Assembly (NCBI GenBank): GCA_030690945.1
Contig: JAUYFM010000015.1
Span: 42,111-106,110, forward strand
Direction of reading: 5' to 3'
Origin: Smithellaceae bacterium
GTDB taxonomy: Bacteria; Desulfobacterota; Syntrophia; Syntrophales; Smithellaceae
Length of the DNA stretch: 64,000 nucleotides
The notes under the pieces are model-generated. The model was not told the DNA's origin, did no database searches, and saw only the letters and a list, made by a program, of their open reading frames with translations. Of the stretch, positions 37,724 through 39,093 are shown one piece after another (position 1 is the stretch's first letter; each line of letters opens with the position of its first letter). The translations under genes were made by a program, and so were the position numbers.

Positions 37724-37751
37724 TTTTTTTCTTGATTTTATGTTTTTGTGT
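37724..37751 (+). terminator. Weak terminator after nrdG
   Basis: ATCAAGAA and TTCTTGAT form an 8-bp stem with a T-rich loop, followed by a T-rich tail. It overlaps the -35 of the metK promoter. Weak stem, so efficiency is doubtful. Confidence 0.35.
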
Positions 37752-37759
37752 GGTATCTT
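37732..37759 (+). promoter_or_regulatory. Promoter of the metK riboswitch leader
   Basis: TTGATT (37732-37737), 16-base spacer, TATCTT (37754-37759). Transcription would start near 37766, immediately before the aptamer, as expected for short SAM-II leaders. Confidence 0.5.
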
Positions 37760-37765
37760 TCAGGA

Positions 37766-37817
37766 CAAGCGGTGATTTAAAGTAAATTGCTCCGCTCTAT
37801 AAATGTGCTAAAGCACT
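37766..37817 (+). ncRNA. SAM-II-type (SAM-II/SAM-V clan) riboswitch
   Basis: The leader shows stem P1 AGCGG/CCGCT (37768-37772 / 37792-37796) enclosing TGATTTAA and TTGC, then ATAAATGT and the conserved GCTAAAG. These are the invariant blocks of the SAM-II aptamer in the same order and spacing. TGCT (37788-37791) can pair with AGCA (37812-37815) to make the pseudoknot. It precedes metK, a classic SAM-regulated gene. The assignment is from memory of the consensus; a covariance-model search would settle SAM-II versus SAM-V. Confidence 0.85.
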
Positions 37818-37841
37818 GAAACTCAATGAATCATTCAATTG

Positions 37842-37867
37842 AACCCGTGCTTTGGCGCGGGTTTTTT
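37842..37867 (+). terminator. Rho-independent terminator of the metK riboswitch
   Basis: AACCCGTGC pairs with GCGCGGGTT (9 bp, one G-U, loop TTTG) followed by a T run. Its 5' side GTGCTTT (37847-37853) is the exact complement of AAAGCAC (37810-37816) in the aptamer, so the two structures exclude each other. Confidence 0.88.
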
Positions 37868-37917
37868 AATTTTTACATGAAAAACCCGCACAAAAAATTC
37901 GATAAGGAGAAAAGTTT

Positions 37918-39093
37918 ATGCAGATTTCGTCGGAAAGTGTCAAAGTGGGTCATCCTGATCTGGTTGCGGATATTATTGCGGCCAATATTATCGCGGCTAT
38001 CCTCGATGAAGAAAAGAAACAAAAGCTTACGCTGGCCAATATGCCGCATTGCGGCATTGAGGTCTTTTTAGGCAAAGGAATATGCCTGATTGGCGGCGAG
38101 GTCCGCACCAGAGTGTATGTCGATATTGATAAAATTGCCAGACAAACCGTAATTGAGCTCGGTTATAATCACGCGGCTGTCGGCTTGAACGGGCATTTAA
38201 TGGGCGTGCTCAACGCGATTATTCCTCAATCGGAAGATATCAATCAGGGAACCAGCTGCCTTTTAAATAAAGATCGCGAAATCGGAGCGGGCGATCAGGG
38301 CATCATGTATGGTTTTGCCTGTGACGAAACGCCGGAACTTCTTCCGCTGCCCTATGTTCTGGTCAATAAAATGATGCGGGCCTTTGAGTATTGTCAGGAC
38401 CCGATTTTCGCGCCGGATGGGAAAGGGCAGGTATCCGTCGATTATGACACCAAGACGGGAAAACCCCTGCGCCTGGCAAAGGTACTGATGTCCAACTCGA
38501 TTGATTACCGTTATGTCAAAGGCGATAGGTCGAAGGTGCGAGACCGAGCCAAAAAGATCGCTTTTGATTGTCTTAAAGATTACGTGGATAAGAAGACGGA
38601 ATTTTTGTTTAACCCGACCGGGGAATGGAATGCCATCAATTCCTGCAGCGCGGCGGATTCCGGTTTGACCGGACGCAAACTGGTTGTGCAGTTTTACGGC
38701 GGGTATCCCGGCGCACAGCTGGGCGGCGGCGCGGTCGTCAATAAGACACCGGAGAAAGTTGATTGCTCGGCGGCCTTCGGCGCCCGTTACGTTGCCAAGA
38801 ACATCGTGGCGGCGGGGCTTGCTTCCAAATGCGCAGTCCAACTGGCTTACGCTATCGGTATTGCCGATCCTTTCTCGATTTATGTCAATACTTTCGGCAC
38901 AGGAAAAATGTCGGATGAGAAGCTGGAGAAAATTATCGAAACGCATTTTGATTTGACGCCGGAAGGCATGATCGAAAAATTTGCTCTGCTGGACGGGAAT
39001 ATTTATCGTAAAATTCCCCGGACGCTCTTTATGGATGATTACCGCTGGGAAAAAACAGATAAAGTGAAAGATCTGCAAAAATCGGCTAAATAG
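37918..39093 (+). CDS. metK: S-adenosylmethionine synthetase MetK, divergent form
   Basis: MetK (391 aa) makes SAM from methionine and ATP. Recognisable motifs are ESVKVGHPD (residues 5-13), GAGDQGIMYGFACDET, the catalytic-lysine region DGKGQVSVDYD, GLTGRK, and SAAFGARYVAKNIVAAGLA. The sequence deviates from the usual family: the glycine-rich loop normally reading GGGAFSGKD is GGGAVVNKT, and the N-terminal third is poorly conserved. It keeps the loop lysine. ATG 37918 follows AAGGAGA. Expression is probably switched off by SAM through the upstream riboswitch. purB follows 25 bases after the stop, so it may share this control. Confidence 0.92.
   Translation: MQISSESVKVGHPDLVADIIAANIIAAILDEEKKQKLTLANMPHCGIEVFLGKGICLIGGEVRTRVYVDIDKIARQTVIELGYNHAAVGLNGHLMGVLNAIIPQSEDINQGTSCLLNKDREIGAGDQGIMYGFACDETPELLPLPYVLVNKMMRAFEYCQDPIFAPDGKGQVSVDYDTKTGKPLRLAKVLMSNSIDYRYVKGDRSKVRDRAKKIAFDCLKDYVDKKTEFLFNPTGEWNAINSCSAADSGLTGRKLVVQFYGGYPGAQLGGGAVVNKTPEKVDCSAAFGARYVAKNIVAAGLASKCAVQLAYAIGIADPFSIYVNTFGTGKMSDEKLEKIIETHFDLTPEGMIEKFALLDGNIYRKIPRTLFMDDYRWEKTDKVKDLQKSAK

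What the first reader, a model, noticed from the sequence alone, without database searches (positions are those of the whole stretch)
37732..37917. metK SAM-II-type riboswitch with a built-in antiterminator-terminator switch
Seen: a promoter, the SAM-II aptamer blocks (TGATTTAA, TTGC, ATAAATGT, GCTAAAG), and a terminator 24 bases downstream. The aptamer 3' end AAAGCAC (37810-37816) is exactly complementary to the terminator 5' side GTGCTTT (37847-37853). AGCA within it also forms the SAM-dependent pseudoknot with TGCT (37788-37791). Inferred: without SAM, AAAGCAC holds the terminator open; with SAM it is locked in the pseudoknot and transcription ends. The seven bases thus serve as both ligand-pocket strand and antiterminator, an unusually compact design. 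SAM-II is best known from alphaproteobacteria, so host and mechanism both merit a look.
Basis: partly seen in the sequence, partly recalled or inferred. Interest (0 to 1): 0.75.

Follow-up and report, generated by a model that had tools for sequence, protein, structure and literature searches.

The report
SAM-sensing RNA switch controlling metK
The leader of the metK gene of this Smithella-like bacterium carries an RNA element matching the SAM-II sensor core, and the strand that would hold the bound SAM is also complementary to a predicted transcription terminator, so SAM is predicted to shut off the gene for the enzyme that makes it.

Summary
A SAM-II-type pseudoknot (37768-37817) lies between a promoter-like pair and a predicted intrinsic terminator (37841-37867) in front of metK (37918-39093), in a Syntrophales bacterium (Thermodesulfobacteriota), not an alphaproteobacterium. 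Rfam misses it (RF01726 18.4 bits, cut-off 44). A covariance model from 23 metK leaders matches 85 of 155 genomes of the class, and 0 of 379 sampled phylum genomes outside the order. Two of its matches pass the SAM-II model RF00521.

When the tail after GCUAAA changes (GCAC, GCGC, GTGC, GGCC), the terminator arm mostly changes too; one class (ATGC) did not compensate. In predicted folds the antiterminator is favoured up to 37860 and the terminator from 37862.

SAM binding and SAM-dependent termination are inferred. This is a variant, below Rfam's cut-offs, of a known kind: most SAM-II switches are already thought to act on terminators.

The parts
37732..37759 (+). Predicted promoter: -35 TTGATT 37732-37737, 16-nt spacer with TG at 37751-37752, -10 TATCTT 37754-37759
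   Evidence: Sequence; 8 of 12 matches; a pair of 8 or more of 12 just before P1 in 79 of 105 instances versus 12% of 2100 random positions
37768..37772 (+). P1 5' arm AGCGG
   Evidence: outer pair A-T in 90 and G-C in 8 of 105 instances
37773..37780 (+). UGAUUUAA; UUU 37776-37778 is the predicted third strand of the SAM-pocket triplex
   Evidence: Sequence; positions 37777-37778 invariant in 31 of 31 metK leaders; role by homology to SAM-V U8-U10
37781..37783 (+). P2a 5' strand AGU, predicted to pair with ACU 37815-37817
   Evidence: 45/45, 45/45 and 41/45 standard pairs in class A instances
37787..37790 (+). P2 5' strand UUGC (pseudoknot and pocket)
   Evidence: homology to SAM-V U19-C22
37792..37796 (+). 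P1 3' arm CCGCU
37807..37817 (+). P2/P2a 3' strand GCUAAAGCACU: predicted pocket strand (U37809 bulge, A37810-A37812)
   Evidence: homology to SAM-V G45-A50
37805..37816 (+). Antiterminator 5' strand GUGCUAAAGCAC (overlaps the pocket strand)
   Evidence: 12-bp helix in the predicted fold of transcripts ending at 37858-37860; covariation
37823..37842 (+). Linker hairpin predicted in both states; shortens the gap between the antiterminator strands
   Evidence: Predicted fold only
37847..37858 (+). Antiterminator 3' strand GUGCUUUGGCGC, equal to part of the terminator's 5' arm, loop and 3' arm
37841..37867 (+). Predicted intrinsic terminator: stem 37841-37864, U tract 37862-37867
   Evidence: in relatives a terminator in 86 of 105 instances by a strict finder and 102 of 105 by a relaxed one
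37904..37909 (+). Shine-Dalgarno AAGGAG of metK, outside the aptamer
   Evidence: Sequence
37918..39093 (+). metK, methionine adenosyltransferase (391 aa)
   Evidence: Pfam S-AdoMet_synt N/M/C; NCBIfam TIGR01034, 324.2 bits over cut-off 309.4

Best explanation
The metK leader holds a sequence matching the SAM-II pseudoknot core, the predicted pocket strand of which is complementary over 12 bases to the predicted terminator, and bound SAM would likely lock that strand away so that the terminator forms and metK is switched off. Without SAM, GUGCUAAAGCAC would pair with GUGCUUUGGCGC as soon as the polymerase has made the latter. That happens a few nucleotides before the terminator's 3' arm is complete, so transcription would run into metK. 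With SAM, the same strand would be held in P2 and P2a, and the terminator hairpin would form. Shown here: the elements, their conservation in Syntrophales, the covariation of tail and terminator, and near-equal computed energies of the two folds. Inferred: SAM as the ligand, co-transcriptional switching, and repression.
For: (1) All pocket positions of SAM-II/V as described in PMC6061858 (passages) are present. On 37755-37830, RF01726 is the only Rfam match on this strand up to E 10, at 18.4 bits. (2) The same core precedes metK in 30 of 54 named metK loci examined. Model R1 matches 85 of 155 class genomes, and both places over the RF00521 cut-off are also R1 matches. (3) P2a pairs in 45/45, 45/45 and 41/45 class A instances with A-T, G-C, G-T and T-A variants. 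(4) Antiterminator on 31 leaders: 95.3% of cells paired, 4 cells in 2 pairs changed on both sides, 27-47% paired when slid; 0 of 500 shuffles reach the paired percentage or the covariation score. The own terminator region pairs better than the mean of those of other tail classes in 94 of 103 instances. Ungapped, 8 or more of 10 bases pair in 72 of the 86 instances with a strictly defined terminator; allowing bulges and a relaxed terminator, 98 of 102. (5) On the MetK tree (49 rows) the GGCC tail lies inside the GCAC group, with GCCTTTTGGC in place of GTGCTTTGGC. (6) Predicted folding: antiterminator at -27.8 (to 37858) and -29.3 (to 37860), terminator from 37862 (-29.6); with the pocket strands blocked the terminator fold remains, -23.5. 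(7) metK makes SAM, so repression is simple feedback (inference).
Against: No Rfam model reaches its cut-off here. P1 and P2 hardly vary among the metK leaders and give no covariation support by themselves; the 31 leaders were picked with an exact core pattern, so their core invariance is partly by construction. For the antiterminator, 17 of 500 shuffles reach the number of pairs changed on both sides and 162 of 500 the number of pair types. Only 51 of 103 instances beat 99% of dinucleotide shuffles. 14 of 86 instances have fewer than 8 ungapped pairs, among them L202 (G084), which passes RF00521, and both L188 instances (G154), of which one passes it; four instances (L148 second, L182 twice, L188 first) lack the pairing also by the relaxed count. 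The ATGC tail class did not compensate, and GCGC strands pair better on average with terminators of three other classes. P2a is only 3 bp; 24 of 500 shuffles reach its paired percentage. Free-energy models ignore the pseudoknot and SAM. I have no binding or transcription data.
Confidence: 0.86

Rival explanations
1. SAM-II-type aptamer that senses SAM, but the terminator is constitutive (an attenuator with fixed leak) and control acts on RNA stability or through the released leader RNA, as partly seen for S. meliloti metA.
For: In S. meliloti a terminator behind the metA SAM-II aptamer was not predicted to be SAM-driven, and RNA stability differed under high-SAM conditions (passages of PMC9373788). 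The terminator is the slightly more stable end state. 14 of 86 instances have fewer than 8 ungapped antiterminator pairs.
Against: In most instances the terminator's 5' arm and loop follow the tail sequence of the aptamer, which a constitutive terminator would not need.
Confidence: 0.08
2. The pseudoknot senses another ligand (such as SAH or methionine) with the same platform.
For: Rfam score is far below cut-off, and SAM/SAH-type aptamers are known upstream of metK in Rhodobacterales (passages of PMC4239095).
Against: The uracils that face the SAM sulfonium in SAM-V (U9, U20) and their partner A48 are kept here as 37777, 37788 and 37810. A SAM-SAH match appears only on the opposite strand at 13 bits.
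Confidence: 0.04
3. The element controls translation by hiding the Shine-Dalgarno sequence, as in metX SAM-II and SAM-V.
For: The crystal-structure examples of SAM-II/V act that way (passages of PMC6061858 and PMC10907184).
Against: The Shine-Dalgarno (37904-37909) lies 86 nt beyond P2a and outside the pseudoknot, and a terminator lies between.
Confidence: 0.02

Closest known systems
SAM-II riboswitch, Rfam RF01726 (long loop) and RF00521 (SAM_alpha)
   Same: P1 plus pseudoknot, UUGC and GCUAAA core, third-strand UUU, P2a, terminator downstream, gene of SAM metabolism; best covariance match RF01726
   Different: Below cut-off (18.4 versus 44 bits); one U between UUGC and the P1 3' arm where RF01726 has AA; 3-bp P2a where 60% of SAM-II have 5 bp (passage of PMC6061858); target metK; order Syntrophales
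Sinorhizobium meliloti metZ SAM-II riboswitch (PMC9373788, passages)
   Same: SAM binding is predicted to lead to a Rho-independent terminator
   Different: Other gene and phylum; its predicted alternative structures are in a supplementary figure that I could not see
SAM-V riboswitch (RF01826, accession recalled; crystal structure PMC6061858, passages)
   Same: Pocket nucleotides and the pseudoknot register used for the assignment here
   Different: SAM-V controls translation and the SD is part of P2a; no SAM-V match up to E 10
SAM/SAH riboswitch (RF01727) upstream of metK in Rhodobacterales (PMC4239095, passages)
   Same: Target gene metK
   Different: Only a weak opposite-strand match of its model

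Membership tests
SAM-II riboswitch | P1 stem with a pseudoknot P2 between its loop and the 3' tail | tested here: met
   Standard pairs in 99.0% of cells, but almost no variation, so weak proof by itself; P1 outer pair A-T in 90, G-C in 8 of 105 instances
SAM-II riboswitch | Pocket nucleotides (third-strand UU, UU of UUGC, bulged U, AAA of GCUAAA) | tested here: met
   All present in the window and invariant in 31 metK leaders (GCUAAA and UUGC partly by selection); pocket positions from passages of PMC6061858
SAM-II riboswitch | Extra 3' helix P2a | tested here: met
   3 bp; 45/45, 45/45, 41/45 paired in class A. Sliding by -2 also pairs two of the three positions in 45/45 but only 4 of 45 of the third
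SAM-II riboswitch | Reaches the gathering score of RF00521 or RF01726 (a detection threshold, not a structural feature) | tested here: not met
   18.4 of 44 bits for RF01726, RF00521 not listed; in the class RF01726 passes in 0 of 155 and RF00521 in 2 of 155 genomes, and both places are also R1 matches. I therefore call it a divergent SAM-II-type variant
SAM-II riboswitch | Upstream of methionine/SAM genes, promoter directly before P1, often a terminator behind P2 (passages of PMC1273637) | tested here: met
   metK-like gene within 2.5 kb in 79 of 105 instances, starting within 430 nt in 75; promoter-like pair; terminator in 86 of 105 strict, 102 of 105 relaxed
SAM-II riboswitch | Selective SAM binding | not testable with these tools
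   Needs in-line probing or ITC
SAM-V riboswitch | SD of the next gene within P2a; translational control; SAM-V model match | tested here: not met
   SD is 86 nt downstream of P2a; no SAM-V match up to E 10

The most novel reading that the evidence does not exclude
Syntrophales have a metK-dedicated branch of SAM-II in which the terminator has evolved to read the ligand pocket itself: every base of the GCUAAA pocket strand must serve both the SAM triplex and the antiterminator. Near the window a further strand, AAAAACCCGCAC (37880-37891), would capture the terminator's 3' arm after read-through, making a relay of mutually exclusive helices. The branch outlived exchange of its target gene, since it stands before two MetK types about 40% identical.
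Probability: 0.2. Interest if true: 0.6.

Novelty: new variant of a known kind. Interest (0 to 1): 0.45.

Why it matters
It would extend SAM-II to an order of syntrophic bacteria where present Rfam models mostly overlook it (85 of 155 class genomes by our model; 2 of 155 pass RF00521; 0 of 155 pass RF01726) and give it metK as main target. In 2007 Barrick and Breaker wrote that the way SAM-II aptamers control expression had not been experimentally established (passage of PMC2258182); the S. meliloti study of 2022 gives in vivo data with a predicted terminator (passages). This leader is short, has nearly balanced predicted folds and has natural compensatory variants, so the step from SAM pocket to termination becomes directly testable in a purified transcription assay.

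Tried and rejected
Rejected: that the element belongs to RF00512, RF02860 or other families listed above RF01726; the ones whose alignments I saw rest largely on the generic terminator hairpin and are far below their cut-offs. Considered and given low odds: translational control and another ligand (see rivals). SAM-I (RF00162) passes in only 2 of 155 class genomes and not in the window's genome. Tried without result: RF00521 in the window's own genome (best E 1.2, none at metK); literature on SAM-II with Syntrophus, Desulfobacterota or Smithella (0 papers each) and with Deltaproteobacteria (1 paper, whose single Deltaproteobacteria mention concerns the rpsB motif). Only openly licensed PMC papers are covered. 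The third-strand scan parsed the wrong arm in L051, L054 and L056; I discount its 17 of 31 and use only the presence of a CCCGC box behind the terminator, 18 of 31. I did not test alphaproteobacterial SAM-II sequences for the same antiterminator, so I cannot say how common this layout is in the known class.

Rows dropped: L092 has no upstream DNA and was left out. L066 and L069 gave matches about 300 nt upstream that I take as spurious. L203 and L204 (weak R1 hits, E 9.6e-4 and 0.005) gave no pattern match. 110 pattern rows became 105 after duplicates were removed. One search used 103 of the 105, 91 distinct cores (87 in its three classes), the MetK tree 49 proteins. Model R1 was built from 23 of the 31 leaders.

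Full report
WHAT IS THERE. The window lies in a genome of the order Syntrophales. The named loci whose MetK is nearest (98, 97 and 96% identical) are titled uncultured delta proteobacterium, Syntrophaceae bacterium and Deltaproteobacteria bacterium, and others are called Smithella or Smithellaceae. Smithellaceae belong to Thermodesulfobacteriota, class Syntrophia. metK (37918-39093; TIGR01034 equivalog) follows nrdD and nrdG2 genes and precedes a lyase gene with an adenylosuccinate-lyase C-terminal domain. Between nrdG and metK are a weak promoter-like pair ending at 37759, the aptamer blocks and one terminator-like site.

IS IT SAM-II? At Rfam's gathering scores the whole window has no hit. 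With relaxed thresholds on 37755-37830 the only hit on this strand is RF01726, 18.4 bits, E 0.097 for that stretch, aligned over its full length. The decisive evidence is comparative. Of 55 metK loci found in named genomes, 54 have upstream DNA; 30 of these carry the same core within 250 nt of the start. The 24 without it are metK copies at 69-73% identity (23) and a spirochaete gene at 39%; one locus at 74%, L064, does carry it. A covariance model R1 from 23 of the 31 aptamers finds a match at E of 0.01 or less in 85 of 155 genomes of the class. In 395 genomes drawn from the phylum it finds 13, all among the 16 listed as same order or closer and none among the other 379. RF00521 passes its cut-off at two places in the class, G154 (43.6 bits) and G084 (41.6 bits), and both are R1 matches as well, at E 1.3e-5 and 3.6e-6. 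So the Rfam-recognised SAM-II and the window's element are linked by intermediates.

THE PSEUDOKNOT. In the SAM-V crystal structure, whose core superimposes on SAM-II, U20:A48, U19:A49 and A18:A50 pair, U47 is bulged and contacts the SAM adenine, and U9 and U10 belong to the third strand (passages of PMC6061858). Mapped here by me: C37790-G37807, G37789-C37808, U37809 bulged, U37788-A37810, U37787-A37811, A37786.A37812, third strand U37777-U37778. P2a then falls on A37781-U37817, G37782-C37816 and U37783-A37815, after three non-canonical positions on each side (the same spacing as I recall for metX SAM-II; that comparison is from memory). In 45 distinct class A instances these three pairs are standard in 41, 45 and 45 cases, with A-T, G-C, G-T and T-A at the outer one. 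On the metK alignment 93.3% of P2a cells pair, 6.6-69% when slid; 24 of 500 shuffles reach the percentage and 15 of 500 the covariation score.

THE SWITCH. GCUAAAGCAC (37807-37816) pairs with GUGCUUUGGC (37847-37856) over 10 bp, and the predicted fold adds G37805-C37858 and U37806-G37857, 12 bp in all. On the alignment of 31 leaders 95.3% of cells pair, against 27-47% when the partner is slid; 0 of 500 column shuffles reach the percentage or the covariation score, 17 of 500 the number of pairs changed on both sides, 162 of 500 the number of pair types. Across the class the four letters after GCUAAA differ: of 103 instances GCAC 35, GGCC 22, GGCT 14, GTGC 10, CAGC 8, GCGC 7, ATGC 4 and three singletons. 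The terminators mostly follow, for example GTGCTTTGGC, GCGCTTTGGC, GCCTTTTGGC, and TTTGTTTAGC behind a CAGC tail. The duplex with the own terminator region is stronger than the mean with those of other classes in 94 of 103. With a strict terminator finder 86 of 105 instances have a terminator, and in 72 of these 86 at least 8 of 10 ungapped positions pair; with a relaxed finder and bulges allowed it is 98 of 102 (the relaxed finder has no shuffled control). Counter-evidence: GCGC strands pair better on average with terminators of three other classes, the ATGC class lost one pair without compensation, 52 of 103 instances do not beat 99% of shuffles, 14 of 86 fall under 8 ungapped pairs, including the instances that pass RF00521 (L202; the L188 pair), and four have fewer than 7 pairs even by the relaxed count. 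On a tree of 49 MetK proteins the tail classes need 5 changes, the least possible for 6 classes, so the number of independent events is small. The GGCC pair (100/98) is nested within GCAC and has the matching terminator.

ENERGETICS. As the transcript grows, the predicted minimum-energy fold contains the antiterminator for ends at 37853 (-17.1), 37856 (-23.9), 37858 (-27.8) and 37860 (-29.3), and the terminator at 37862 (-29.6), 37864 and 37867 (-30.0 kcal/mol). With the pocket strands made unavailable the terminator fold has -23.5. A hairpin at 37823-37842 is predicted in both states and brings the antiterminator strands together. These are nearest-neighbour predictions without the pseudoknot or ligand.

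CONTEXT OF THE FAMILY. Of 105 distinct aptamer instances, 79 have a metK-like gene in the 2.5 kb downstream: 56 nearest to the window's type and 23 to a second type about 40% identical to it. In 75 it begins within 430 nt; in four (both instances of L196 and of L188) it lies more than 1.1 kb away behind other reading frames. Twelve loci have two aptamers in tandem. Tandem SAM-II is known: 44 cases in PMC9481103 (passages). The window's own genome has one R1 match.

KNOWN BACKGROUND. SAM-II was found in alphaproteobacteria with a few cases in other proteobacteria and the Bacteroides group, and many have putative terminators (passages of PMC1273637). [quoted passage not shown] A survey of about 200 proteobacterial genomes saw SAM_alpha only in Rhizobiales and Rhodobacterales, with metY as core target; its delta groups in the table were Desulfovibrionales and Desulfuromonadales (passages of PMC4239095). 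S. meliloti metZ is predicted to terminate on SAM binding (passages of PMC9373788). My searches for SAM-II with Syntrophus, Desulfobacterota or Smithella gave no paper. Hence: same working principle, a lineage and main target that I did not find described, and mostly below current Rfam cut-offs.

VERDICT. Observation confirmed; mechanism most likely right with a corrected pseudoknot and a longer antiterminator; SAM binding and SAM-dependent termination remain to be shown.

Noticed in passing
window 37880-37891: AAAAACCCGCAC is complementary to the terminator's 3' arm and U tract (-16.9 kcal/mol, shuffled mean -6.7). A CCCGC box lies behind the terminator in 18 of 31 metK leaders; by eye it does not covary with the arm. 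It may capture the arm in read-through mRNA, or have another role.
   Followed up: partly
L146, L148, L151, L152, L153, L155, L160, L169, L170, L182, L188, L196: Two SAM-II-type aptamers in tandem, mostly a TTGCTCCGC type followed by a TTGCAGCCGC type, several with a terminator-like hairpin after each.
   Followed up: partly
L151, L152, L155, L160, L168, L170: In five of these six loci tandem aptamers (in L168 a single one was seen) precede related small proteins (roughly 110-200 aa). The L170 member has no Pfam or NCBIfam match; a possible new SAM-controlled gene.
   Followed up: partly
L196: Tandem aptamers precede a PF01008 (IF-2B family) protein that resembles methylthioribose-1-phosphate isomerase, a methionine-salvage enzyme (that name is recalled), with a metK-like gene further down.
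   Followed up: no
G427 (L215, L217), another family of the same phylum: Two SAM-II matches over the RF00521 cut-off (38.6 and 37.9 bits) precede very similar copies of an unnamed protein; a G+C-rich hairpin follows the aptamer by eye.
   Followed up: partly
class Syntrophia, G041 and G030: SAM-I (RF00162) over its cut-off in only 2 of 155 class genomes; in G041 it lies just before that genome's metK.
   Followed up: no
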